64,000 bases of DNA from Candidatus Palauibacter scopulicola (GTDB lineage Bacteria; Gemmatimonadota; Gemmatimonadetes; Palauibacterales; Palauibacteraceae): assembly GCF_947581915.1 (NCBI RefSeq), contig NZ_CANPWG010000060.1:1-64000 (forward strand), in the 5' to 3' direction. The translations under genes were made by a program, and so were the position numbers. The notes beneath the pieces were generated by a model. The model was not told the DNA's origin. It saw nothing but the letters and a program-made list of their open reading frames with translations, and ran no database searches. Each line of letters starts with the position of its first letter. Positions within the stretch are counted from its first letter, which is position 1. Below are positions 15,841 to 30,862 of the stretch, one piece after another.

Positions 15841-17055
15841 CTAACTCAGGCTCATGCGCTCGACGCCCACCAGCCGGTCGTAGAGCAGGTAGAGAACGAG
15901 CACGCCGGCGAGGAGGAGCGCACCCAGCGCCGCCGCCAGCCCCCAGTTCAGCGACGTCTGCATGTGGTAGGCGACCATGTTCGAGATCAGCTGGCCGCTG
16001 CTTCCGCCCACCAGCGCCGGGGTGATGTAGTAGCCGATCGCGAGGATGAAGACGAGGAGCGATCCGGCTCCCACGCCGGGCAGCGTCTGCGGCCAGTAGA
16101 CCCGCCGGAACGCCTGCGCGGGCGTGGCTCCCATCGAGGCGGCCGCCCGCATGTGCAGCGGCGGGATCGAACGCATCACCGAGTACAGGGGCAGCACCAT
16201 GAAGGGGAGCAGGACGTGCGTCATGGCCACGAGCGTGCCGGTCATGTTGTAGACCATGGAGAGTCGGCCATCGTCGCCGACAAGCCCGACCGCCACCAGC
16301 ACGTCGTTGATCACCCCATGTGTCTGGAGGAGGACGATCCACGATGTGGTGCGGACGAGGAGCGACGTCCAGAAGGGCACAAGAACGAGGGCAAGCAGCA
16401 GGTTGCCCCGGCGCGGCGGCGCGTGCGCGATGAGGTGCGCGATCGGGTAGCCGAGGATGAGGCAGAACACGGTGATCGCCAGACTCACGAGCAGGGTGCG
16501 CCACAGGAGGGGCAGGTAGATGCGCCGTTCCTCGGGCTGGGGGGCGACGGATCCGTCCGGCAGCCGCTGCATGTCGACGGCGTTGAGGTAGTGGCGGGCC
16601 GTGAAGCGCTCGCCCGCCGCGCGGACGGCGTGCCAGGTCCCCGGGTCGACCCAGGCGGAGTCGATGCCCGCCATCGCCTCGCGCCACGGCCCGCCCGTCA
16701 CATCTTCAAGGTTCCGGGCGGTGCGCGTGAACACGCTGCGCAGCCCGCTTCGCAGCCGGTTCACGCGGCCGGCGACCTGCCCCAGCGTCCTCGCCTCCCG
16801 CGCCAATCCGAGTTCGCGCGCCGCCGCCTCGTACACTGCCTCGGGAGGCAGCCCTTCCCCCTCCCACTCGCGCAGCGCGCCGAGGGTCGCGGGCAGCGCA
16901 TCGGCGACCACCGGGTCATGGACGCTCCGCAGCAGCATCGTCGCCAGCGGGGCCAGGAAAGTGACGCCGAGGAAGACGAGCAGCGGCAGCACAAGCCCCA
17001 TCGCCCGCAGCCGCTCGCGGGGGGGCGGACCGACGCGGCTCAGCGCGCCAACCAC
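15841..17055 (-). CDS. potB: ABC transporter permease, spermidine/putrescine type (PotB-like)
   Basis: 404 residues, longer than the usual about 285 because of an insertion of about 120 residues after the first helix (positions about 45-175, EWEGEGLPPEAVYEAA to MQRLPDGSVAP), predicted to lie in the periplasm. The C-terminal part has the normal permease helices and the coupling loop (AAASMGATPAQAFRRV). The GTG start at 17055 overlaps the stop of the upstream binding-protein gene by 16 bases. It would form the membrane channel with the PotC-like partner. The periplasmic insertion is unusual, though similar ones occur in some PotB homologues. Confidence 0.87.
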   Translation of the reverse strand: MVGALSRVGPPPRERLRAMGLVLPLLVFLGVTFLAPLATMLLRSVHDPVVADALPATLGALREWEGEGLPPEAVYEAAARELGLAREARTLGQVAGRVNRLRSGLRSVFTRTARNLEDVTGGPWREAMAGIDSAWVDPGTWHAVRAAGERFTARHYLNAVDMQRLPDGSVAPQPEERRIYLPLLWRTLLVSLAITVFCLILGYPIAHLIAHAPPRRGNLLLALVLVPFWTSLLVRTTSWIVLLQTHGVINDVLVAVGLVGDDGRLSMVYNMTGTLVAMTHVLLPFMVLPLYSVMRSIPPLHMRAAASMGATPAQAFRRVYWPQTLPGVGAGSLLVFILAIGYYITPALVGGSSGQLISNMVAYHMQTSLNWGLAAALGALLLAGVLVLYLLYDRLVGVERMSLS

Positions 17056-18143
17056 GCGCTGAAGCGCTCGTTCAGCACGTCCTGGTTATCCACCCACCAG
17101 ACCCAGTCCCTGCGGAGCGCGCGCGCCATGTTGGCGGGATGCGTGGGCAGGTGCGGCCCCATCTCCACGCCGGTCTCCAGGTGGGTCGTGATCAGCGGCG
17201 CGGCCGAGGTCCGGGCGGGGCCGTACGAGATTCGGCGGCCTAGCGCCGCGAGCGCCTCGGCGGTACTCGCGAAGCTCACGAGTCGCATCGCCTCCTCGAC
17301 GCGCGGCGTGCCGGCGACGATGGCCAGCTGGTTGATGTCCAGGAGTTGCCCGTCCCAGACGATCTCGAACGGCTTGTTCTCCAGCACCTGTGCGTTGAAG
17401 ATGCGTCCGTTGTAGGCCGTGCTCATGACGACCTCCCCGTCGGCCAGCATCTGTGGCGGCTGGGCGCCGGCCTCCCACCACACGACGTGATCCTTGATCG
17501 TATCGAGCTTGCGGAACGCCCGGTCCAGACCCTCCGGTGTGTCGAGCAGGGCGTACACCTCCTCCGCCGGCACGCCGTCCGCCATGAGGGCGGATTCGAG
17601 GTTGAACATGGGAACACGGCGCATGCCGCGGCGCCCGGGAAACTTCTCGAGATCGAAGAAATCGGCGATCGTCTCCGGTCTGTCGCCCGGGAAACGGCTC
17701 GCATCGAACGCGTAGATCGTGGACCAGACGACAACCCCGGCCCCGCAGTCGGAAAGGGTCCCGGACAAGAAGTCCTCCGCCGCCGGCGTCCCGTCCGCTC
17801 CGGGGGGCAGAACCTCCGTATCGATGTACTCCAGCAGCCCCTCGTCGCAGGCGAGCATGACGTCCGACACGTTCAGGTCCACGACGTCCCAGTAGACGTT
17901 GCCGACCTCCACCTGGGCGCGGACCTGGGCCAGGGCGCCGGTGAAGTCCTCGACATCCACCCGGATCCCGGTGGCGGCGGTGAAGGGCTCGAACCACGCC
18001 TCCGTGCTCGCCTTCTGATACGAGCCACCGTACGAGACGGCGGTGATCGACTGGGCGGCCGCGTGTCCGGCGACACACGCGACGAGGGCGGCGGCGCAAG
18101 CGGACGTGCGCGCCACGGCGTGCGCGAGCGGGTCAGTTCGCAC
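17040..18143 (-). CDS. potD: Polyamine-type ABC substrate-binding protein (paralogue 2 of tandem pair)
   Basis: 367 residues with a Sec signal peptide ending near HAAAQ and no lipobox. The body is a type-2 periplasmic binding protein of the PotD/PotF group (VSYGGSYQKAS, WDVVDLNVSD, FPGRRGMRRVP, WWEAGAQPPQMLADGEV). It would capture the ligand and deliver it to the PotBC-like permease. It begins at GTG 18143, overlapping the upstream paralogue's stop by 11 bases. It is similar to that neighbour throughout, so the pair arose by tandem duplication, but it lacks the lipid anchor. Confidence 0.88.
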   Translation of the reverse strand: MRTDPLAHAVARTSACAAALVACVAGHAAAQSITAVSYGGSYQKASTEAWFEPFTAATGIRVDVEDFTGALAQVRAQVEVGNVYWDVVDLNVSDVMLACDEGLLEYIDTEVLPPGADGTPAAEDFLSGTLSDCGAGVVVWSTIYAFDASRFPGDRPETIADFFDLEKFPGRRGMRRVPMFNLESALMADGVPAEEVYALLDTPEGLDRAFRKLDTIKDHVVWWEAGAQPPQMLADGEVVMSTAYNGRIFNAQVLENKPFEIVWDGQLLDINQLAIVAGTPRVEEAMRLVSFASTAEALAALGRRISYGPARTSAAPLITTHLETGVEMGPHLPTHPANMARALRRDWVWWVDNQDVLNERFSAWLAR

Positions 18144-19272
18144 GGGTCAGCCAAGCGCTGAAGCGCTCGTTCAGCGCGTCCTGGTTGTCGACCCAGAACT
18201 CCCAGTCGTTCCGCAGGGCGCGCGCGATGTTCTCCGGGCTCGTGGGCAGGTGGGGCGCCATCTCGACGCCGGTCGCGAGGTGCGTCGTGACGAGCGGCTC
18301 TCCAGACCGGCGGGCCGGACCGTAGGAGATCCGGCGCGCGACCGCCGCCAGCGATTCCCCGGTTGTCGCGAAGGCGACGAAGCGGAGCGCGTTCTCGAGC
18401 CGCGGCGTCCCGGCCACGATGCTCAACTGGCCGTAATCGAGCACCTGGCCGTCCCACACGATGACGAACGGCTGCTCCTCCAGGATCTGTGCGTTGAAGA
18501 TGCGGCCGTTGTAGGCCGTGCTCATCACGACTTCCCCGTCCGCCAGCATCTGCGGCGGCTGGGCGCCCGCCTCCCACCAGACGACCTGGTCCTTGATCGT
18601 ATCGAGCTTGTCGAAGGCGCGGTCGAGCCCTTCCGGCGTCGAGAGCGTGGCGTACACATCGTCGAGCGGGACCCCGTCCGCGATGAGGGCGAACTCCAGG
18701 TTCACCTGCGGGACGCGGCGCATTCCGCGGCGCCCCGGGAACTTCTCGAGGTCGAAGAAATCCGCCATCGTCGCGGGCCGCTCATCCGGGAAGTGGTCGG
18801 CGTTATACGCATACACCGTGGAGTAGAAGAGCATCCCGGCTCCGCACTCCCCCTGCATCTCCGGGTAGAAGTCCTCCCTCGCGGGCGTCCCGTCGGGGGC
18901 CGGGGGCAGCATGTCGATGTCGATCGGCTCCAGCAGGCCCTCGTCGCAGCCGCGCATCGCGTCCGCCATCTCCAGGTCCACGACGTCCCAGTAGACCGCG
19001 TCGACATCGACCTGCGCCCGGATCTGGGCGAGGCCGCCGTTGTAGTCCTCCATGTCCACCCGAATCCCCGTCTCATCCATGAACGGGACCTGGATGGCCC
19101 CGCGATACGCCCGGCCGTAGGAGCCTCCCCAGGAAACGGCCGTGATCGCCGGATCCTCCGGCGCCTGCGGCCCGCACCCGAGCGTGAACGCCGCGGCGGC
19201 GACCAGGGCGGCGAGCGTTACGCCGCGTGAGGTGTGAACCGCAGACCCCTTCTTCGTATTCATGATTTTCAT
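18133..19272 (-). CDS. potD: Polyamine-type ABC substrate-binding lipoprotein (paralogue 1 of tandem pair)
   Basis: 379 residues. The signal peptide ends in a lipobox (FTLGC), so the mature protein should be membrane-anchored. The PotD-type body shares VSWGGSYGRAY, FPGRRGMRRVP and WWEAGAQPPQMLADGEV with the next gene. The start has a GGGAG site and overlaps the ATPase stop (ATGA). Having two adjacent, similar binding proteins, one lipidated and one soluble, in the same operon suggests either two ligands or two affinities served by one permease. Confidence 0.88.
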   Translation of the reverse strand: MKIMNTKKGSAVHTSRGVTLAALVAAAAFTLGCGPQAPEDPAITAVSWGGSYGRAYRGAIQVPFMDETGIRVDMEDYNGGLAQIRAQVDVDAVYWDVVDLEMADAMRGCDEGLLEPIDIDMLPPAPDGTPAREDFYPEMQGECGAGMLFYSTVYAYNADHFPDERPATMADFFDLEKFPGRRGMRRVPQVNLEFALIADGVPLDDVYATLSTPEGLDRAFDKLDTIKDQVVWWEAGAQPPQMLADGEVVMSTAYNGRIFNAQILEEQPFVIVWDGQVLDYGQLSIVAGTPRLENALRFVAFATTGESLAAVARRISYGPARRSGEPLVTTHLATGVEMAPHLPTSPENIARALRNDWEFWVDNQDALNERFSAWLTRAN

Positions 19273-21653: not shown

Positions 21654-24089
21654 CTAGCGGCCGATGAGCCTCAGGAAGCGGGGGTCCTCGCGCACGCGCT
21701 CGAAGTCGTCCGCGTCGGGCAGGGTCCGGCGTCGACCCGGATTGAGTTCGACCGCCCGCGCCAGGGCGTCGAAGGCGTCCTCCTCGCGCCCGTCGTCGAG
21801 CAGGAGCGCGGCCAGCGTCACCCACGCGTTGTCGTTCTCCGGCGACCTCTCCGAGGCGTCGCGCGCCAGCGCCAGGGCGCCCGGCAGATCGCCGTCCCGC
21901 CTCAGCCGCGAGGCGTCGCGCAACATCCGGCCCGAACGGTACATGTCCAGGACCCGGCGCAGTTCGGCGAGCGGTTCGTCGTGGTCGTCCACCCGGATGT
22001 CGACGACGCGGTCGCTGTAGCCGCCGTTCACCCGCGGCGCCACGACGAGGATGGCGCCGGACTGCATGCCGCGCGCATCGCCGCCGGCCGCCTGCGCGGC
22101 GTCGAGCGCGTCCATCAGCCGCTCCGCGAGCGGTCCCGCGGACGACTCGAACGAGGCCGCCATCGCGTCGACCACCTCGGGCCCCGTGAGGATGTTCCCC
22201 TGCGCGCAGTAGTCCACGCCGCACCTGTGGCCCTTCCAGTCGCTCGCGCCCGCGCCGGTCCAGGCGGCCGTCCGCCCCTGCTGGTCGAGGATCGCGACCT
22301 GGCGGCGATCCCGGCCCTCGTCACTCCCCACCATCATCTCGAGGGCTTCCTCCGGCGAGTATCCGGCCTGGAGGAGTTCGATGCCGATCGCCCCGTACAT
22401 GGGGTTCGCGGCGGCCTGGTGGGCGATGATTACGAGCCCGCCCTTGGCGTGCATGGCGCGGTTCCCCGCCCCGAACGCCTTCGACTGCACGCCCATCCCC
22501 AGTTCGCCGGTCGCGGGATCGCGCCCGATGATCGAGTACGTCCCGAGGTAGTTCGGGTCGGCGAGGTTTTCACCGCTGCCGGACGTCGGAACCATCTGCG
22601 GCTCGGGAACCGCCTCGGGCGAAGCCCAGGCGCCGCCCAGCGCCCGGTGGACGGCCAGCCGCGCGAGGGCCAGGTCTCGCGTCGCGCCCGCCAGCGCCGC
22701 CTCGACGTTCAGGAGCGTGCGCAGGGCGTCGAGGTAGTCGGTGTAGCCCACGACCCCCGATTCGTAGCGCTGCGACTGCAACTCCATCGTCGCCAGCGCC
22801 TCCTCGCGCTGGGAGGCGAGGAACGCGTGCCGTCGAGTCTCGTTCTCCAAACCGGCGAGCGCGGTTTCGACTTCGTTCACCGCCGTCACCACGGTCCGTC
22901 CGTACGCGTGTGCGGCTTCATCGAAACGGGCCTCGGCCAGCGCGAGATTGTTCCGGAGGCGACCGGCCTGGAAGATGGGCGCGGTCAGGTTCGTGATCAG
23001 ATTCGTGAACCACTGCTGTGCGTTGAAGAGCTCGCCGGCGTCCGCGCTGGCGAGCCCGATGGAACCGGACAGCGAGAGCGACGGCAGCAGTTGGGCCCGG
23101 CGTGCGCCGATACTGTAGCGGGCCGCGTCGAGCCGCTGGCCCGCCGCCCTCACGTCGGGCCGCTGGTGCAGGAGATCCGCCGGTATCCCGGCGGGGACGG
23201 GGTCCGCCGCGAGTTGCGGCGCGAGGGAGTCGGGCAGAATCACCTCGACATCCTCCCGATAGCCGCCCAGCAGGACGGCCAAGCGAGCCTCGGCACTCGT
23301 GAGCTGCGTCTCGAGCTGCGGCAGCCCCGCCTGCGTGTTCCTGAGGTCCTGGCGGACCTGGGACAGCGTCCACGAGTCGATCAGGCCGCGATCGTAGCTC
23401 GTCGAGGCCAGCGACTCGCGTTCGAGCAGCACCTCCACCGTCTCGCGGGCCAGTCCGGTCTGCCGCCGCAGGCTGACGATGTCGAAGTACGTGGTGATGG
23501 TCTCGGCCAGGATGCCGATCCGCGCCGCATGGAAGTCCGATTCCGACGCCAGGTACTCCGACCCCGCCGCCCGCGCGTCGTTGCGGGCGCGTCCCCAGAA
23601 GTCCAGCTCCCAGGAGAGATCCGCGCTGACCGAATACGTCGTCAGATCGATTCTGTCCGGAAACACGAACCCCGCGATCGAATCCCCCGGACCGCCCAGC
23701 CCGAGGGCCTGGATCTGCGCGCCGATGCCGGCGTCCGTCGGGGTGTCGGTATCGGTGACGTTTCCGCTGGCCCCGACGCTCGGGAAGAGGTCGGCCCGCG
23801 CCATGCGCGCCCTGGCGCGAGCCTGCCGAACCCGAGCAACGCCCGCGGCGAGGTCGAAGTTGGAGGCGAGCACGGAGTCGACCACGGCGTCGAGCACCGG
23901 ATCCCGGAACGTCGTCCACCACTGCAGCGGCTCGTACATCCCCGGCTGGAGGTCGGCCGAGAAATCCTCCGGCATTTCCGCCACCGGCTCCGGGAGCGAC
24001 GGCCCGGGAGCCAGCGAACAGGCGGAGAGCAGCAGCAGCGGGGCGGCCCGCAGCAGCTTCGTCACGCGCGGTACTCCCGGGCGCGCCAT
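21654..24089 (-). CDS. NodT/TolC-type outer-membrane lipoprotein fused to DUF1028 and TPR domains
   Basis: 811 residues in one unbroken frame. Residues 1-24 are a lipoprotein signal (LLLLSAC, Cys24). Residues about 25-487 are a NodT-family outer-membrane factor, as in RND-type efflux systems (PLQWWTTFRDPVLD, ELDFWGRARND, HQRPDVRAA, TAPIFQAGRLRN, VVTAVNEVETAL, VHRALGGAW). A linker of about 28 residues leads to a full DUF1028 domain at about 516-720 (GTYSIIGRDPATGELG, QSKAFGAGN, AQGNILTGPEVVDAM, VDIRVDDHDEPLAELRR). Residues about 722-790 form a TPR-like helical end. DUF1028 belongs to the Ntn-hydrolase superfamily in COG annotation (COG3342); its activity is unknown. It is the last gene of a six-gene minus-strand run. 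I know of no described protein with this layout. Confidence 0.88.
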   Translation of the reverse strand: MARPGVPRVTKLLRAAPLLLLSACSLAPGPSLPEPVAEMPEDFSADLQPGMYEPLQWWTTFRDPVLDAVVDSVLASNFDLAAGVARVRQARARARMARADLFPSVGASGNVTDTDTPTDAGIGAQIQALGLGGPGDSIAGFVFPDRIDLTTYSVSADLSWELDFWGRARNDARAAGSEYLASESDFHAARIGILAETITTYFDIVSLRRQTGLARETVEVLLERESLASTSYDRGLIDSWTLSQVRQDLRNTQAGLPQLETQLTSAEARLAVLLGGYREDVEVILPDSLAPQLAADPVPAGIPADLLHQRPDVRAAGQRLDAARYSIGARRAQLLPSLSLSGSIGLASADAGELFNAQQWFTNLITNLTAPIFQAGRLRNNLALAEARFDEAAHAYGRTVVTAVNEVETALAGLENETRRHAFLASQREEALATMELQSQRYESGVVGYTDYLDALRTLLNVEAALAGATRDLALARLAVHRALGGAWASPEAVPEPQMVPTSGSGENLADPNYLGTYSIIGRDPATGELGMGVQSKAFGAGNRAMHAKGGLVIIAHQAAANPMYGAIGIELLQAGYSPEEALEMMVGSDEGRDRRQVAILDQQGRTAAWTGAGASDWKGHRCGVDYCAQGNILTGPEVVDAMAASFESSAGPLAERLMDALDAAQAAGGDARGMQSGAILVVAPRVNGGYSDRVVDIRVDDHDEPLAELRRVLDMYRSGRMLRDASRLRRDGDLPGALALARDASERSPENDNAWVTLAALLLDDGREEDAFDALARAVELNPGRRRTLPDADDFERVREDPRFLRLIGR

Positions 24090-24096
24090 CGCGTGC

Positions 24097-24819
24097 TCAG
24101 GGCGCGATGCTGAAGCCGAACACGAGGTGCGCCCGGTCCTGGTCGGGATTCAGGATGTACGCGACGCTCACCGGCACGGCGAAGGTCTGGGTGATCGCAA
24201 GATCCTTGCTCGCCGTCACCCCCAGGTTGACCACGGCCGCTTCGTGGGTGCCGTAGAAGTCGCTCTCGCCACCCACGAAACCCATGTGCAGCTGCAACCC
24301 GACATCCACCCCGGAAATCGCGAAGGGCACGCCCACCTCCCCGTAAAACACTCTGCTCTCGGTGAGCACGCCTCCGAAAAGGGAGATCGGGAACGTCTCC
24401 GGCCCCGAGAAGGCGAGCGACATCTCCACCGTGTGCGCCGCACCGGCCCCGAAGCCGGCGCTGGCGTCGGGCGAAGGGAAGTAGTAGTCCGTGATTCCGA
24501 CCGCGACGGAGAGGCCCGATTCGGCCGTCACCGTGTAGGTCGCCCAGAGGTCGTTTTCGTTGGCCGAGGCGCCCGGGGCGGAGATGGAGTACGAACCCCA
24601 CGCACCGAACTCGAGCCCTCCGGCCCCGAAGGTGATCGCCGGCTGCACGGCCATGGATTCGCCGAAGTCGACGCCGCGCCACACGTAGCGGCTCACGACG
24701 TCGGCCCCGATCGAGACGGATTGCCCCCACACGGGAACGGCGAACGCGAAGAGGGCCGTGACGACGGCGGCGAGCCGGCGGCCCCGGAACCGGAACGAAT
24801 CAACGCGGATCACGGGCAC
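24097..24819 (-). CDS. TorF-family putative outer-membrane porin
   Basis: 240 residues with a Sec signal peptide ending near VWGQ. The mature part alternates short amphipathic strands and opens with VSIGADVVSRYVWRGVDFGES, the hallmark of the TorF/TIGR02001 putative porin family. It should form a small beta-barrel in the outer membrane; the cargo is unknown. Its start overlaps the transglutaminase stop by ten bases and its stop is seven bases from the NodT-DUF1028 start, so it is embedded in the operon. The C-terminus (GFSIAP) lacks the usual terminal aromatic residue. Confidence 0.85.
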   Translation of the reverse strand: MPVIRVDSFRFRGRRLAAVVTALFAFAVPVWGQSVSIGADVVSRYVWRGVDFGESMAVQPAITFGAGGLEFGAWGSYSISAPGASANENDLWATYTVTAESGLSVAVGITDYYFPSPDASAGFGAGAAHTVEMSLAFSGPETFPISLFGGVLTESRVFYGEVGVPFAISGVDVGLQLHMGFVGGESDFYGTHEAAVVNLGVTASKDLAITQTFAVPVSVAYILNPDQDRAHLVFGFSIAP

Positions 24820-25682
24820 GATGCTTCTCCTCTCTCAATGGTGACCCGGGTGCGAAGCATCGACTCCGCAGAACCCCGGAAGACGCCGCGAGTGGGCGGA
24901 ACATCGGCATAATCGCGGCCCACCGCGACCCGCACATGGCGCACATCGCATTGTGTGTCGTTGGTCGGATCGAAGCCGACCCATCCTGCGCCGGGAAACC
25001 AGCTCTCGACCCAGGCGTGGCTTTCGCCTCTCGTTACGCCGCCGCCGTCCCCGCTATCCGGACCCAGATAGCCCGACACGTAGCGGGTCGGGATCCCCCA
25101 ACCCCGCAGGATCGAAGCCATGACGTGAGCGTAGTCCTGGCACACGCCCTCGCGGCTCTCGAGGATGCGCTCGATCGGCGAATCCACGGCGGTCGTACCT
25201 GGAATATAATCAAACGACTCGTGGAGCCGGCTCCGCAGCGCCGTGGCGGTCGCCAGCGGATCATCCCCGCGTTCGAGGCCGCGGCTCTCGATGAAGTCGG
25301 CGAGGAGCGGCGAGGAGCGGACGAAACGGCTGGGCTGCAGCATCAGTCCGAGTTCGGGAGCCCTCGCCGCGGCGTCGAGCCGGGCCCACGCCTCTTCCCC
25401 GACCTCCAGGGGCGCCTCCGGTATCGGACCCACCTCCACGGTCGAACGTCCGACGATCGAGAGACGGCGATGCGTGCCGGGGCGATCGAAGAAGTGGCCC
25501 CGGTTGTGGAACGGTCCTTCGAATTCGAACACGGGGCCGGACGGGTCGGTCTCGATCGCGAACCCGCGCACGACCTGCCTTCGGTCCTGCACGGGGTGCA
25601 GATGGAGCGTCATGACGGACCCCCGAACCGGCGCGCTGTACACGAACTCGACCGCGTGTTCGATCGTGTAGCGCGCGATCAT
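24810..25682 (-). CDS. Transglutaminase-like cysteine peptidase/transferase
   Basis: 290 residues. An N-terminal beta domain (IARYTIEHAVEFVYSAPVR, typical of the Bact_transglu_N domain) is followed by a transglutaminase-like core with the full Cys-His-Asp triad: Cys181 (REGVCQDYAH), His222 (GESHAWVES) and Asp238 (GFDPTND). The family either cleaves or forms amide bonds. The ATG at 25682 overlaps the alpha-E stop (ATGA); the much longer upstream frame is an artefact of GC-rich sequence. It is the third member of the conserved ATP-grasp/alpha-E/transglutaminase module. No signal peptide is seen, so it is likely cytoplasmic. Confidence 0.92.
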   Translation of the reverse strand: MIARYTIEHAVEFVYSAPVRGSVMTLHLHPVQDRRQVVRGFAIETDPSGPVFEFEGPFHNRGHFFDRPGTHRRLSIVGRSTVEVGPIPEAPLEVGEEAWARLDAAARAPELGLMLQPSRFVRSSPLLADFIESRGLERGDDPLATATALRSRLHESFDYIPGTTAVDSPIERILESREGVCQDYAHVMASILRGWGIPTRYVSGYLGPDSGDGGGVTRGESHAWVESWFPGAGWVGFDPTNDTQCDVRHVRVAVGRDYADVPPTRGVFRGSAESMLRTRVTIERGEASCP

Positions 25683-26677
25683 GACGGGAGCCCCGCGGTC
25701 ACCGGATAGTCGACGTACGTGGCCTGCACGAGGTCGTGCAGCGTCCGGCTGTCGCGCGTCAGAGGTCCGAAGGGCTCCCCCGCTTCGGCATCGGGTGCGG
25801 CATCGGATGCGGCATCCGCCTCGCCCGGATCCAGTTCGAGGGCGGCCGAGATGCGAAGCGCCAGGCGGTGCGGCGCGGCGAGTGGCGGGCGCCCGCCGGC
25901 CGGGTCGATGCCCCGCAGCGTGGACTCGATGCGGTCGGTCGCGTAGTGCAGCGAACGGGAGACCTCCGGGTTCCGCATCAGAAAGCCGAGGACGGAACCG
26001 CGGTGCAACGTGAGCGACCGGTCCCGGCGGTAGGGTTCGAAGGCGCCGCACACGCGCAACAGGTCGGCCCAGGAGAGGGCCAGGCCGCCACCCTGCGGCC
26101 GCGCGATCCGATCCCACACGTCGAGCAGCACGATCTGCTGCTGCAGCCGCTCCACGTAACGGCCGAGTTCGAGGAAGCGCCACGCATCGTCCCGCGCCAT
26201 GTTGGCGTCCACCACCCCGGCGAGGAGGCGGAGCCGGTCGATCGCCTGGCTCACCAGAGCCGCCGGTCCCTCGCCCCAGGCGTCGGCGAACTCCGTCTCC
26301 TGGAGCCAGAGGTACCCCTGGTTCAGGCACACCCACACGCGCAGGGGCAGCCGCGGCCGGATTTCCCTGGCGTTCTCCCGCGCCATCCCCCAGCACGAGA
26401 TCATCGACGCCGGGTTCGTCGTGTCCTCGACGAGGCCGCCGGTCAACGTGTAGGCGTCCGCGATGAGGAAAGCTTCGGCCTCGTCCACATCGGCCGGCGC
26501 CTGGGGAGGCGGCTGACTCAGGGCCCGGTACACGACGCGCCATCCGAGGGCGAGTTCGTCGGCATCCGCATCCACGAGCCGGGTCAACTGGTACTCGAGC
26601 AGGCGGGCCGTGTTTTCGGTCCGTTCCGCATAGCGGCCAAGCCAGTAGAAGTTCGCCGCCATCCGGGCCAGCATCAT
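25679..26677 (-). CDS. Alpha-E domain protein (DUF403)
   Basis: 332 residues, mostly helical, opening with MLARMAANFYWLGRYAERTEN, the diagnostic alpha-E start, and containing SMISCWGMARENAREIR and ARDDAWRFLELGRYVERLQQ. The domain's conserved glutamates and arginines were predicted to give an enzymatic or ligand-binding role in peptide-ligase operons, but no reaction is established. It lies six bases after the ATP-grasp stop and overlaps the transglutaminase start, so the three are tightly coupled. Confidence 0.93.
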   Translation of the reverse strand: MMLARMAANFYWLGRYAERTENTARLLEYQLTRLVDADADELALGWRVVYRALSQPPPQAPADVDEAEAFLIADAYTLTGGLVEDTTNPASMISCWGMARENAREIRPRLPLRVWVCLNQGYLWLQETEFADAWGEGPAALVSQAIDRLRLLAGVVDANMARDDAWRFLELGRYVERLQQQIVLLDVWDRIARPQGGGLALSWADLLRVCGAFEPYRRDRSLTLHRGSVLGFLMRNPEVSRSLHYATDRIESTLRGIDPAGGRPPLAAPHRLALRISAALELDPGEADAASDAAPDAEAGEPFGPLTRDSRTLHDLVQATYVDYPVTAGLPS

Positions 26678-26683
26678 CCGCCG

Positions 26684-28183
26684 CTACTCACGGAGAATCC
26701 ATAGATCCTTGCAGCCTCCGCCCTGGCTGGAGTTCACGACGAGGCTCCCCTTGCGCAGCGCGACGCGGCACAGCCCCCCGGGAACGACATGCTGCTCTTC
26801 GCTCCCCTGGAGGACGAAGGGGCGCAGGTCCACGTGGCGAGGCTCCAGTCGTCCGTCCACGAAACAGCCCGCCCGGGAAAGGGGCAGCACCGGCTGCGAG
26901 ATGTAGTTCGCCGGGTCGTTCCGCAGGTGCTCCGCGAACGCCTTGCGCTCAGCCTTCGTCGCGTGCGGGCCCACGAGCATCCCGTAGCCGCCGCTCCCGC
27001 CGACCTCCTTGACGACGAGCTCCTTCAGGTTGTCCAGCGTGTAGGCGAGGCCGTCCGGCTCCCGGCAGAGATGGGTTTCCACGTTGGCCAGGATCGGCTC
27101 TTCATCCAGGAAGTAGCGGATGATGCGGGGGACGTACGCGTACAACGCCTTGTCGTCCGCCACGCCCGTGCCCGGCGCGTTGGCGAGCACCAGGTTGCCG
27201 GCCCGGTAGGCGTGGAAGAGGCCGGCGGCCCCGAGCACGGAGTCGTCGCGGAAAGCGACCGGATCCAGAAAATCGTCGTCGATCCGACGGTAGAGCACGT
27301 CGATCCGCCGCAGACCCGCGGCCGTGCGCGCGTACAGCGTCGCGTCGTGCACGACGAGATCCCGCCCCTCCACCAGGTCGACGCCCATCTCGCCGGCCAG
27401 AAACGCGTGCTCGTAGTACGCGGAGTTGTATCGGCCCGGCGTCAGCACCGCCATGCGGGGCGTCTCCGCCGTCCGCGAGAGCGACGCGAGCGTCGAGTAG
27501 AGGCGCTCCGGGTAGTCCGCCACCTCGCGGACCCCGTACGCCCGATACAGGTAGGGGAAAGCCCATTTCATCGCCGTGCGGCAGGCGAGCATGTAGGAAA
27601 CGCCCGACGGGACGCGGAGATTGTCCTCCAGCACCGCGAACGTGTCGCCCGCGCGCACGATGTCCGTCCCGCACACGGCGACGTATACGTCGTGCGGCAC
27701 CCTCATCCCCCGCATCTCGAGACGGTACTGGGGACAGCCGAGCACGAGGTCGACCGGGACGATGCCATCCCGCAGCGACTTCCCGTCGTGGTAGACGTCG
27801 TGCAGGAACAGGTTGAGGGCCGCGAGGCGCTGCTTCAGTCCCCGCTCGATGTGATCCCACTCCTCGGCGGTGATGAGGCGCGGCACGCAGTCGATGGGGA
27901 TGATCTGCTCCGAGACATCTTCGACGCCGAGGACCGTGAACGTGATCCCCTCATGGACGAAACGGCGGTACACGCCGTCCTGGAGCCGCTCCAGGTCTTC
28001 CGGAGGGATCCTGGAGAGGGCGGTCCGCAACCGGCGCGCCCGCGCCCTGGGGGTACCGTCCTCGTGAAACAGCTCGTCGTGAAAGGCGGCATCCAGTTCG
28101 TAGTGGCGGAAAGGCCCGGACCCCGCCGAGATCGCGGGGTCCGGGTCGGCATAGCCGTGATCGACGAACTTCACCGCCGACAT
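26684..28183 (-). CDS. Circularly permuted type 2 ATP-grasp protein (peptide ligase family)
   Basis: 499 residues, matching the DUF404/DUF407 circularly permuted ATP-grasp family: YRRFVHEGITFTVLG, FLHDVYHDG, EDNLRVPSGVSYML, GRYNSAYYEHAFLA, LYRRIDDDFLDP, KEVGGSGGYGML and the C-terminal NSSQGGGCKDLWIL. ATP-grasp enzymes join a carboxylate to an amine through an acyl-phosphate; this family is predicted to make short peptides or amino-acid conjugates, with product unknown. It starts 25 bases after the ammonium transporter stop and leads directly into alpha-E and transglutaminase genes, so all may share a transcript with the transporter. Confidence 0.94.
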   Translation of the reverse strand: MSAVKFVDHGYADPDPAISAGSGPFRHYELDAAFHDELFHEDGTPRARARRLRTALSRIPPEDLERLQDGVYRRFVHEGITFTVLGVEDVSEQIIPIDCVPRLITAEEWDHIERGLKQRLAALNLFLHDVYHDGKSLRDGIVPVDLVLGCPQYRLEMRGMRVPHDVYVAVCGTDIVRAGDTFAVLEDNLRVPSGVSYMLACRTAMKWAFPYLYRAYGVREVADYPERLYSTLASLSRTAETPRMAVLTPGRYNSAYYEHAFLAGEMGVDLVEGRDLVVHDATLYARTAAGLRRIDVLYRRIDDDFLDPVAFRDDSVLGAAGLFHAYRAGNLVLANAPGTGVADDKALYAYVPRIIRYFLDEEPILANVETHLCREPDGLAYTLDNLKELVVKEVGGSGGYGMLVGPHATKAERKAFAEHLRNDPANYISQPVLPLSRAGCFVDGRLEPRHVDLRPFVLQGSEEQHVVPGGLCRVALRKGSLVVNSSQGGGCKDLWILRE

Positions 28184-28207
28184 TGAACGCTACCCGTGGG
28201 CGGACGC

Positions 28208-29617
28208 TCAGTCCGCGTCGCGGAAGTCGTTGTCGTCGTCCGGATCCACCATGAGCACGAATTCGGGATAAGCATCGATCCCGAGCTCCGCGGCATCCTG
28301 GCCGATGCTCTCGACGCTCCGCGACACGCGAACGCCCAGCGTCCTGTCCAGCACCGTCCAGAAGACCCAGGAAATGAAGAAGACGAACGCGCCGACGGCC
28401 GCCACGCCGGTCAGCTGCACGACGAAATCGCCGCCGGCCGCGATGCAGGTGGCGAGCGTGCCCCAGGCTCCGGCGAACAGGTGCGCGGGCACGGCCCCGA
28501 CCACGTCGTCGATCCGCCGCATCTCCAGCAGCTTCAGCCCGAACATGCACAGGAGGGAGCCGACGGCGCCGATCAGGATCGCCCACAGCGAGTTGGTGAT
28601 GTTCGGTCCGGCCGTGATCGCCACCATGCCGGAGATCGCCCCGTTGAGCGTGGCGAAGAGGTCGACCCGGCCGAGTATGGACCGGGACAGGCAGAGCGCC
28701 GTGATGACGCCGGCCCCGGCGGCGAGGTTCGTGTTCACGAGGATGTTGCTCATCGAAACCGCGTTGACGACGCCCGAGAGGGCGAGTTCGGAGCCGCCGT
28801 TGAAGCCGAACCAGCCCATCCAGAGGATGAACACGCCCAGCGTAACCGCGGGGATGTTCGATGGAGGCGTCGCCTTGACGGAGCCGTCCTTGCGGTACTT
28901 GCCCCAGCGCGGGCCCACGACGAGCGCGCCGGCGAGCGCCGCCCAGCCGCCGGTCGAGTGCACGATCGTCGAGCCGGCGAAGTCCGTGAAGCCCATCTGT
29001 CCGAGCCAGCCGCCGCCCCACGTCCACGCGCCGACGATGGGGTAGATGACCCCGGTGAGCCCGCCCACGAAGACGAAGAAGGTCCAGAGCTTGACCCGCT
29101 CGGCCAGCGCGCCGGAGACGATCGAGGCGGTCGTGGCGACGAAGACCATCTGGAAGAACCAGTCCGACATCACGGAGTAGCCGTTCTCCGCGACGGCGGC
29201 GGCCGCGCCTTCGTCCCCGCCGATAAGCGCGATCTCGTCTGCGGAGGGGCCGTAGAGGAAGCTGATCGATCCGATCACGCTCCCGACATCGACGTACATG
29301 AGGTTGTAGCCGATGACGTAGTACATGAGACCCGCGATGGCGTACAGTCCGATGTTCTTCATGCAGATCATGGACGCGCTCTTGGACCGCACGGACCCGG
29401 CTTCCAGCATCGTGAACCCGGCGCACATCCACATCACGAGCACGCCCCAGACGAGGAACGAGTACGTGTTGAGGACGAACCCGAGGTCTCCGGCAACGTC
29501 CTGCGCGGCGAGGAACGCCGGCGCCAGTAGGAGGCCCGCGCCGGAGAGCAGCGCGGCGGTTGCAAGGTTCCTTCCCGCCGTGAACCGGCGGGACCAGCGT
29601 ACCTGATGGGTGCTCAC
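28208..29617 (-). CDS. amt: Ammonium transporter (Amt family)
   Basis: 469 residues with a signal-like N-terminus (cleavage near FLAAQ) and eleven membrane helices. Family motifs include MLEAGSVRSKSA, HSTGGWAALAGA (pore histidine), ILWMGWFGFNGGSE, NTNLAAGAGV and HLFAGAWGTL (second pore histidine). It conducts ammonia across the inner membrane. I chose GTG 29617 because AAGGAG stands six bases upstream; an ATG at 29656 is also in frame. No GlnK-type PII gene is adjacent, which is unusual for amt. The next gene downstream begins 24 bases after its stop. Confidence 0.93.
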   Translation of the reverse strand: MSTHQVRWSRRFTAGRNLATAALLSGAGLLLAPAFLAAQDVAGDLGFVLNTYSFLVWGVLVMWMCAGFTMLEAGSVRSKSASMICMKNIGLYAIAGLMYYVIGYNLMYVDVGSVIGSISFLYGPSADEIALIGGDEGAAAAVAENGYSVMSDWFFQMVFVATTASIVSGALAERVKLWTFFVFVGGLTGVIYPIVGAWTWGGGWLGQMGFTDFAGSTIVHSTGGWAALAGALVVGPRWGKYRKDGSVKATPPSNIPAVTLGVFILWMGWFGFNGGSELALSGVVNAVSMSNILVNTNLAAGAGVITALCLSRSILGRVDLFATLNGAISGMVAITAGPNITNSLWAILIGAVGSLLCMFGLKLLEMRRIDDVVGAVPAHLFAGAWGTLATCIAAGGDFVVQLTGVAAVGAFVFFISWVFWTVLDRTLGVRVSRSVESIGQDAAELGIDAYPEFVLMVDPDDDNDFRDAD

Positions 29618-29803
29618 GGCGGCTCCTTCTTCAAACGGGTGTTGTCGCTCGATCATGGCCCTCCGCGACTCTCGATCTAGGTTGCGTCCCTGCTCGGCAT
29701 CGCGCAACGGGTTCTCGGCGGCCCGGTAGCCGAACGGCGGCAGTCGCTTATCTTCGGGTGTGACCGGGCTACACCGGAATCTTCGACGAGAGGGCATATC
29801 ATC

Positions 29804-30862
29804 ATGTGGAAACGCTCCATCGGAGTGGTCGCCGCATTTGGGTTGGGGCTCGCGCTCGCCGCCGTCCACCCCCTCCTTGCCCAGGAAATCCGGGCGCGTG
29901 GCGGCTCCACCGTGACCGTGGGCGCCCGCGTCCAGGCACAATACGAGGCTTCGAGCGTTGACGAGACGCCGTCATCCTTCTTCATCCGCCGCGCGTGGGT
30001 GACGATCGACGGGAGGCTCAACGAGCTCGTCACAGCCAGGGCTCAGTTCAACATCGACGGCGCAGCGGTGCTCGAAGCCTACCTGGAACTCACGCCGAGC
30101 GAGGCGCTGCAGATCCAGCTGGGGCAGTTCAAGAAGGGGATGTCGTACTTCTGGCTGGTGCCCAACTCCTGGCTTCCGATCATCGAACGAGACGCCAGGG
30201 TCACGGGGGTGGATCACTGCCCCGGCGTCGGGAGCGTATGCACCTTCGGCCGCCTCACCGACGCGCTGGGGCTGGATAACTACGAGCCGGGCATCCTCGC
30301 GCAGGGGCGCTTGAGCGACCTCTTCGGCTACCGGTTCACGCTCACCAACGGCGAGGGGATCGGGAACAAGGACGTGAACACGGGGAAGTCGGCCTCGGGC
30401 CAGCTCTCGCTCTTCCCCACCGGAGGGGACACGCGCGTGTCCGCCTACTTCGCCCTGGACGAGACGCTCAACAGCCGGGACGAGACGATGGGCGTCCCGG
30501 CGATCGGCGCCGAGGTGGAACTCGGGACGTGGCTCGGCGGTCCCCACCTGATCGCCAACGTCCTGCAGGGCCGCAACTGGAAGCTGAACGATGACGCGAA
30601 GTTCTCGGCCTTCCAGTTCATGGCCTTCTGGTATCTTCCCACGGCGCCCGAGTCCGGGGTCTCGGGGATCGAGCCGATGCTCCGTGTGAGCTGGGTCGAT
30701 TCCGGCGCGGAACATCCGGAGAAGGTCACCGGGACGGTGGTCACGCCCGGCGTCATGGTGTACTTCGCGGGCCGAAACGGGATCTCCACCAACGTGGACT
30801 TCTACAGCTCTGGCGGCCGGTCGGACTGGTCCTGGAAGGTGCAGGCGTTCGCTTTCTTCTGA
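29804..30862 (+). CDS. Phosphate-selective porin (OprP/OprO-like)
   Basis: 352 residues with a Sec signal peptide ending near LLAQ. The mature part looks like an outer-membrane barrel with short amphipathic strands (RRAWVTIDGRLNELV, LEAYLELTPSEALQIQLGQFK) and a C-terminal phenylalanine (FAFF), as required by the barrel assembly machinery. It resembles the porin O/P family for anionic substrates; the exact solute is not readable. It is divergent from the ammonium transporter gene across about 185 bases and followed by a strong terminator. Confidence 0.88.
   Translation: MWKRSIGVVAAFGLGLALAAVHPLLAQEIRARGGSTVTVGARVQAQYEASSVDETPSSFFIRRAWVTIDGRLNELVTARAQFNIDGAAVLEAYLELTPSEALQIQLGQFKKGMSYFWLVPNSWLPIIERDARVTGVDHCPGVGSVCTFGRLTDALGLDNYEPGILAQGRLSDLFGYRFTLTNGEGIGNKDVNTGKSASGQLSLFPTGGDTRVSAYFALDETLNSRDETMGVPAIGAEVELGTWLGGPHLIANVLQGRNWKLNDDAKFSAFQFMAFWYLPTAPESGVSGIEPMLRVSWVDSGAEHPEKVTGTVVTPGVMVYFAGRNGISTNVDFYSSGGRSDWSWKVQAFAFF

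What the first reader, a model, noticed from the sequence alone, without database searches (positions are those of the whole stretch)
21654..24089. NodT/TolC outer-membrane lipoprotein fused to a DUF1028 domain and TPRs
A complete NodT-like protein ending at ALGGAW is followed, after about 28 residues, by a complete DUF1028 domain with its own conserved start (GTYSIIGRD) and then TPR-like helices. NodT proteins normally end at the first point. I know of no described efflux factor with a hydrolase-like domain on its periplasmic end.
Basis: partly seen in the sequence, partly recalled or inferred. Interest (0 to 1): 0.75.

Follow-up and report, generated by a model that had tools for sequence, protein, structure and literature searches.

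The report
Efflux-channel lipoprotein fused to proteasome-fold enzyme
In sponge and coral bacteria of the genus Palauibacter, the gene for an outer-membrane efflux channel is permanently joined to an uncharacterised enzyme with a proteasome-like fold; the join is real and conserved in eleven species, and the enzyme may cut itself free at the join.

Summary
Window 21654-24089 (-) is one 811-residue ORF: a NodT/TolC outer-membrane lipoprotein (TIGR01845, 300 bits), the native NodT tail, a complete DUF1028 domain (220 bits) and a TPR tail. The same fusion occurs in 11 of 17 species of the genus (Candidatus Palauibacter), downstream of Amt > ATP-grasp > alpha-E > transglutaminase > TorF-like porin in every fused region examined. 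It is therefore not an assembly error. Both halves are under purifying selection (dN/dS 0.09 and 0.035). The full fusion was not found outside the genus.

Ca. P. poriticola keeps both NodT ends but has lost the NodT body in frame, leaving a 370-aa DUF1028 lipoprotein. The hydrolase is the part that is retained. DUF1028 models as a proteasome/Anbu-type Ntn hydrolase. Related DUF1028s are independently fused to an SDR and to M28 peptidases.

Best reading: a lipoprotein-tethered periplasmic Ntn hydrolase that probably autocleaves at Gly516|Thr517. Tethering is well supported; autocleavage is inferred. The NodT is an orphan, with no pump gene on its contig, so coupling to efflux is unproven. New variant of a known kind.

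The parts
21654..24089 (-). Whole fusion gene, 811 aa (NodT - tail - DUF1028 - TPR)
   Evidence: same frame in 11 species
24021..24089 (-). Lipoprotein signal peptide (MARPGVPRVTKLLRAAPLLLLSA) before lipobox Cys24; Ser at +2
   Evidence: sequence; C24 invariant in the NodT alignment A4; outer-membrane sorting inferred from general knowledge of the +2 rule
22632..24044 (-). NodT/TolC outer-membrane factor domain (residues 16-486)
   Evidence: TIGR01845 299.9 bits, PF02321; nearest solved relatives CmeC 4mt4, OprJ 5azs, SilC, CusC, OprM
22542..22631 (-). NodT C-terminal tail plus pre-Thr segment (residues 487-516): tail homologous to standalone NodT C-termini, then a variable stretch, then invariant DPNYLG
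   Evidence: pLDDT <50 at residues 501-509
22539..22541 (-). Thr517: invariant first residue of DUF1028 strand 1; proposed N-terminal nucleophile; proposed scissile bond Gly516|Thr517
   Evidence: Thr in 55/55 rows of A1; strand E28-35 of the model starts at this residue
21960..22541 (-). DUF1028 domain (residues 517-710), Ntn-hydrolase fold
   Evidence: PF06267 220 bits, 1-193/193; 2imh 31% identity, then Anbu 5nyw and proteasome beta subunits
21660..21902 (-). TPR-type helical tail (residues 730-810)
   Evidence: helices in the model
24097..24819 (-). Gcw_chp (TorF-like putative porin), 7 bp upstream of the fusion gene
   Evidence: PF09694 40 bits
24810..25682 (-). Transglutaminase-like protein of the operon
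   Evidence: name from sequence and gene order; synteny (no profile search run)
25679..26677 (-). Alpha-E protein of the operon
   Evidence: name from sequence and gene order; synteny (no profile search run)
26684..28183 (-). Circularly permuted ATP-grasp-type protein of the operon
   Evidence: name from sequence and gene order; (no profile search run)
28208..29941 (-). Ammonium transporter (Amt); ORF start not refined
   Evidence: name from sequence; synteny (no profile search run)

Best explanation
The gene encodes one precursor exported as an outer-membrane lipoprotein. Its NodT half forms the usual trimeric channel-tunnel. Both NodT termini lie in the periplasm, so three copies of a DUF1028-TPR module are delivered to the periplasmic side of the channel on a flexible tail. 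DUF1028 is an Ntn hydrolase of the proteasome/Anbu fold. Its invariant Thr517 is the likely nucleophile, and such a nucleophile must have a free amino group. The precursor is therefore most likely matured by autocatalytic cleavage at Gly516|Thr517, giving a lipidated NodT of about 53 kDa and a hydrolase-TPR of about 31 kDa that may stay bound. The substrate is probably an amide or peptide taken up for nitrogen: the operon starts with Amt and ends with a porin and this gene, and relatives sit beside amidohydrolases, on M28 peptidases or behind SusC/SusD. Shown: the fusion, its conservation, selection on both halves, a lipobox in both the fused and the NodT-deleted forms, the predicted fold, the complete conserved residue set. 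Inferred: periplasmic location, trimer, cleavage, activity, substrate.
For: The fused frame is present in 11 species in conserved operon order. dN/dS is 0.087 for the NodT core, 0.31 for the linker, 0.035 for DUF1028 and 0.26 for TPR. The linker varies in sequence and length, yet DPNYLG|TYS is invariant among the fused species. AF2 pLDDT is 89.9, with Thr517 opening strand 1 after a poorly predicted segment. Foldseek gives 2imh (E 2e-17), Anbu 5nyw (4.5e-4) and proteasome beta subunits. T1, S3, Q42, D74, R80, Q81, Q114, N116, D155, R157 and Q160 are 55/55 conserved and position 21 is always basic. The residue before Thr varies (A, G, H, S, T, Y), as expected if the domain itself defines the cut. 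DUF1028 is also C-terminal to an SDR and to M28 peptidases, on separate branches of the DUF1028 tree, so the N-terminal partner is interchangeable. Ca. P. poriticola deleted the NodT body between CCGGAGCCG/CCCGAGCCG microhomologies, in frame, and kept the hydrolase.
Against: No cleavage, activity or localisation data exist. Matches to proteasome and Anbu structures are weak (TM about 0.3-0.45, 7-12% identity), and the proteasome's Lys33 and Asp17 have no clear counterpart. Secreted standalone DUF1028s carry residues between the signal peptide and Thr, so Thr may not be N-terminal even there. The conserved DPNYLG just before Thr could be a structural part that is never removed. The full-length model is poor (pLDDT 58) and says nothing about domain arrangement. 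The nitrogen role rests on neighbours only.
Confidence: 0.45

Rival explanations
1. The protein stays in one piece: a bifunctional channel-enzyme in which three uncleaved DUF1028-TPR modules surround the periplasmic part of the NodT trimer and process substrates at the pore. Thr517 acts without a free N-terminus, or DUF1028 is a binding rather than catalytic domain.
For: Pre-Thr residues DPNYLG are invariant among fused species and similar in standalone ones. 2imh was crystallised with residues before the Thr (Thr is at chain position 4). Bucl8 is a precedent for an intact efflux protein with a C-terminal extension (PMC7682875).
Against: Ntn hydrolases as a class need a free N-terminal nucleophile (general knowledge). 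Fusion to unrelated partners at the same point is easier to tolerate if the parts separate.
Confidence: 0.27
2. The NodT part is now mainly an export and membrane anchor. The operon-terminal NodT lost its stop codon, DUF1028 lost its signal peptide, and the hydrolase took over the lipoprotein signal. The channel function is decaying or irrelevant, and no efflux coupling exists.
For: The NodT is an orphan: none of the RND matches in the genome lie on its contig, while its relatives have MFP and RND next door. Ca. P. poriticola deleted the NodT body and kept signal plus hydrolase.
Against: The NodT core is still under strong purifying selection (dN/dS 0.087) in 11 species and is full length with no indel.
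Confidence: 0.22
3. Assembly or frameshift artefact joining two neighbouring genes.
For: The relatives compared are metagenome assemblies and no reads were available.
Against: The same junction with species-specific linker indels occurs in 11 species, including named MAGs from different projects. No standalone DUF1028 exists elsewhere in the genome.
Confidence: 0.01

Closest known systems
NodT / OprM-type outer-membrane factor (TIGR01845; CmeC 4mt4, OprJ 5azs, CusC, OprM)
   Same: Full-length match, lipobox, closest standalone relatives in RND operons
   Different: C-terminal hydrolase and TPR; no MFP/RND beside it; sits in an ammonium-transporter operon
DUF1028 (PF06267; structure 2imh, SPO2555)
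   Same: Complete domain, invariant residues kept, same fold
   Different: In the other Gemmatimonadota seen here it mostly has its own leader; here it is carried by an outer-membrane lipoprotein
Anbu operon (ATP-grasp, alpha-E, transglutaminase, Anbu; PMC6376114)
   Same: Same three partner genes in the same order; DUF1028 shares the Ntn fold and Anbu is the best non-DUF1028 fold match
   Different: No Anbu recognised in the genus, the one proteasome-family sequence read being HslV; a porin gene and Amt are added; DUF1028 is predicted periplasmic, Anbu cytoplasmic; other Gemmatimonadota have the same unit with no NodT or DUF1028 beside it
Bucl8 of Burkholderia (OEP domains plus collagen-like C-terminal extension; PMC7682875)
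   Same: Outer-membrane efflux protein with an extra C-terminal domain
   Different: Extension is collagen-like and described as extracellular, not a hydrolase; Bucl8 sits in a real pump operon

Membership tests
NodT/RND outer-membrane factor | Full-length TIGR01845 match above cut-off | tested here: met
   299.9 bits vs 210.05, 2-459/460
NodT/RND outer-membrane factor | Lipoprotein signal with lipobox Cys | tested here: met
   LLLLSAC, Cys24 invariant in A4; no dedicated predictor run
NodT/RND outer-membrane factor | Partner MFP and RND genes alongside | tested here: not met
   No RND match on its contig; present beside relatives
NodT/RND outer-membrane factor | Trimeric channel that exports a substrate | not testable with these tools
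   Needs biochemistry; full-length model too poor
DUF1028 (PF06267) | Complete domain above gathering score | tested here: met
   220 bits vs 26.2, 1-193/193
DUF1028 (PF06267) | Fold of 2imh | tested here: met
   Foldseek E 2e-17, rmsd 1.6, TM 0.80 by target, on a predicted model
Ntn hydrolase superfamily | Ntn fold | tested here: met
   Anbu and proteasome beta subunits are the next matches; similarity is weak, TM 0.3-0.45
Ntn hydrolase superfamily | Invariant Thr/Ser/Cys at the start of strand 1 | tested here: met
   Thr517, 55/55 rows; strand starts there
Ntn hydrolase superfamily | Free N-terminal nucleophile by autocleavage or Met removal | not testable with these tools
   Needs N-terminal sequencing
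Ntn hydrolase superfamily | Hydrolase activity | not testable with these tools
   No paper naming DUF1028 or PF06267 in the library
Anbu operon | ATP-grasp, alpha-E and transglutaminase genes in order | tested here: met
   Gene order and synteny against PMC6376114; gene names assigned from sequence, not by a profile search
Anbu operon | Anbu gene | tested here: not met
   One PF00227 hit per genome in 16 of 17 genomes, also in species without the operon and on another contig in G000; the one sequence read (L262, G007) is HslV followed by HslU

The most novel reading that the evidence does not exclude
DUF1028 is a self-activating Ntn hydrolase whose autocleavage makes it a portable polyprotein module: it can be appended to almost any exported protein (outer-membrane channel, SDR, M28 peptidase, another DUF1028) and then frees itself. 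In Palauibacter it has been installed at the end of an Anbu-less ATP-grasp/alpha-E/transglutaminase operon, as the periplasmic counterpart of Anbu.
Probability: 0.25. Interest if true: 0.75.

Novelty: new variant of a known kind. Interest (0 to 1): 0.55.

Why it matters
DUF1028 is present in 234 of 395 genomes of this phylum sampled here and has a solved structure, but the paper library held no text naming it. The fusions put its proposed nucleophile exactly at a protein-protein junction, so the Ntn self-processing hypothesis can be tested by one gel and one point mutant. The architecture would also be an enzyme tethered to an outer-membrane channel, with a naturally NodT-deleted relative as an internal control.

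Tried and rejected
Assembly artefact: rejected, 11 species. No plasmid record covers 80% of the query. Other long DUF1028 frames: several (L127, L129, L130, L131, L140) were spurious high-GC extensions with low or negative coding score, while L124, L125 and L132 look like real M28 fusions (L124 confirmed by Pfam). A second NodT with long frames in the genus: 5' extension only. G006 as a pre-fusion ancestor: rejected although it branches first for operon genes, because its protein keeps both the NodT N-terminus and the NodT tail. An internal start giving free DUF1028 (conserved Met at MVP): no Shine-Dalgarno seen and no signal peptide would result; not pursued. Proteasome-like catalytic Lys33: K33 exists in the window but is Glu in other DUF1028s, so not claimed. 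Full-length AF2 model: uninterpretable. First mixed full-length alignment A3 misaligned NodT rows and was discarded. Iyer 2009 amidoligase paper not held.

Full report
WHAT IS THERE. The finding's coordinates are exactly one ORF on the minus strand, 811 residues. Residues 16-486 match the NodT subfamily model almost end to end (TIGR01845, 299.9 bits, cut-off 210). Residues 517-710 match DUF1028 end to end (PF06267, 220 bits, cut-off 26.2). Residues 730-809 match TPR models just above their cut-offs (TPR_19 26.1 vs 25.0; NF047558 37.6 vs 32). The N-terminus carries a lipobox (LLLLSAC, Cys24).

IT IS NOT AN ARTEFACT. This is the only DUF1028 in the genome. Of 17 genomes of the genus, 11 carry the same uninterrupted fusion. 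Palauibacterales are known from sponges, corals, marine sediments and saline soils (PMC10469786). The other six genomes: G010, G015 and G016 have a separate DUF1028-TPR with its own leader; G011 has DUF1028-TPR fused to an SDR; G006 has a shortened form (below); G005 has none. Across the fused species dN/dS is 0.087 for NodT, 0.31 for the linker, 0.035 for DUF1028 and 0.26 for TPR. The linker varies in sequence and length between species, which is inconsistent with a shared assembly error.

WHERE THE PARTS CAME FROM. The fused NodT is not the genome's other NodT (about 44% identity). Its sister group is the standalone NodTs of another Gemmatimonadota family, f6 (66-69% identity; clade support 0.988). 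In the f6 loci listed gene by gene the NodT is directly followed by an MFP, and where the contig continues by an RND pump (Pfam for L152 and L153). Those NodTs end ...GG[DE]WTAPPExLEGPRMVP[AT]E..., so the fusion's ..GGAWASPEAVPEPRMVPTSG.. is the native NodT tail, and the true seam lies in the few variable residues before DPNYLG. The DUF1028 part groups with the copies of other Palauibacter species (support 0.977). In those species it lies near a secreted amidohydrolase. The five upstream genes (Amt, ATP-grasp, alpha-E, transglutaminase, Gcw_chp) form a unit also seen in f6, where neither NodT nor DUF1028 follows. Within the family the ATP-grasp gene is found only in the fused species and G006. 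The present operon is thus a composite of three modules. The names ATP-grasp, alpha-E, transglutaminase and Amt rest on sequence and gene order, not on a profile search here.

A NATURAL DELETION. In Ca. P. poriticola (G006, L094:18472-19584; 370 aa) the upstream operon is present, but the protein reads MTRTGVPHVTKLAGAASVLLLSACSLAPAPSLPEP|RMVPASG...DPNYLGTYSIIG. It starts with the NodT signal peptide and the first residues of mature NodT, jumps to NodT's own C-terminal tail, and goes on into DUF1028. The joint lies at CCGGAGCCG/CCCGAGCCG, short similar sequences at the two ends of the lost stretch. Both NodT ends survive, so the ancestor was fused and the NodT body was lost in frame, although G006 branches outside the 11 fused species for the operon genes. 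The hydrolase remains constrained (dN 0.013, dS 0.245 against the window). This suggests that the DUF1028 module has value without the channel. It is one MAG, with no reads seen.

THE HYDROLASE. AF2 of residues 490-811 (55 sequences) gives pLDDT 89.9. Foldseek finds 2imh, the DUF1028 structure (E 2e-17), and then Anbu of Yersinia bercovieri (4.5e-4) and proteasome beta subunits. These distant matches are weak in TM-score but agree with each other. Residues before Thr517 are poorly predicted; Thr517 opens strand 1. In 55 sequences Thr1, Ser3, Gln42, Asp74, Arg80, Gln81, Gln114, Asn116, Asp155, Arg157 and Gln160 never vary, and position 21 is always Arg, Lys or His. All are present in the fusion. 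The preceding residue varies (A, G, H, S, T, Y).

RECURRENT FUSION. DUF1028 follows three unrelated proteins at the same point: NodT here, an SDR in G011 (612 aa), and an M28 peptidase in f6 (1158 aa; Pfam hits). It also follows itself: a 661-aa DUF1028-TPR-DUF1028-TPR protein directly downstream of a TonB-dependent receptor and a SusD gene. The NodT, SDR and M28 fusions fall on separate branches.

HOW IT PROBABLY WORKS. Shown: the fusion, its conservation, selection, lipobox, predicted fold and residues. From general knowledge: NodT/TolC proteins have both termini in the periplasm, and Ntn hydrolases need a free N-terminal nucleophile, usually made by self-cleavage. Inferred: the precursor is exported and lipidated, the DUF1028-TPR module folds in the periplasm, and it cuts Gly516|Thr517. 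The freed enzyme may act on peptides or amides; the ammonium transporter, porin, amidohydrolase, peptidase and SusCD associations point to nitrogen acquisition. Rivals are an uncleaved channel-enzyme and a fusion in which NodT is only an anchor.

THE ANBU COINCIDENCE. The canonical Anbu operon is ATP-grasp, alpha-E, transglutaminase, Anbu, and Anbu is reported as highly expressed under nitrogen starvation (PMC6376114). Here the same three genes, headed by Amt, end in another protein with an Ntn fold, and no Anbu was recognised in the genus. This is suggestive, but the compartments differ (predicted periplasm against cytoplasm) and f6 relatives have no DUF1028 there. I do not file this as an Anbu operon.

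NOVELTY. No paper naming DUF1028 was found, and a targeted search gave no NodT-hydrolase fusion; the library is open-access only. Bucl8 is the nearest published architecture. I rate this a new variant of a known kind: two known families in an undescribed, conserved arrangement.

Noticed in passing
window 24097-29941 (-); L284-L290, L299: Amt > ATP-grasp > alpha-E > transglutaminase > Gcw_chp porin is a conserved five-gene unit in Palauibacter and many f6 Gemmatimonadota, resembling an Anbu operon without Anbu and headed by an ammonium transporter.
   Followed up: partly
L097:7474-9312 (G011): 612-aa protein: leader, short-chain dehydrogenase, DUF1028 and TPR; an independent N-terminal fusion in the same genus.
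   Followed up: partly
L124:974-4447 (-); also L125, L132: M28 peptidase (membrane-type, about 1150 aa) fused to a C-terminal DUF1028 in family f6.
   Followed up: partly
L159:3234-5219; L160:2698-4689: Tandem DUF1028-TPR-DUF1028-TPR protein directly downstream of a TonB-dependent receptor and a SusD gene.
   Followed up: partly
L094:18472-19584 (Ca. P. poriticola): In-frame loss of the NodT body leaves a 370-aa DUF1028 lipoprotein using the NodT signal peptide.
   Followed up: yes
window 17040-18143 and 18133-19272 (-): Two adjacent, similar PotD-like (polyamine-type) binding-protein genes beside an ABC ATPase; looks like a tandem duplication.
   Followed up: no
G005: A near-complete genome of the genus that lacks both the ATP-grasp gene of the operon and any DUF1028, although the related G004 has them.
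   Followed up: no
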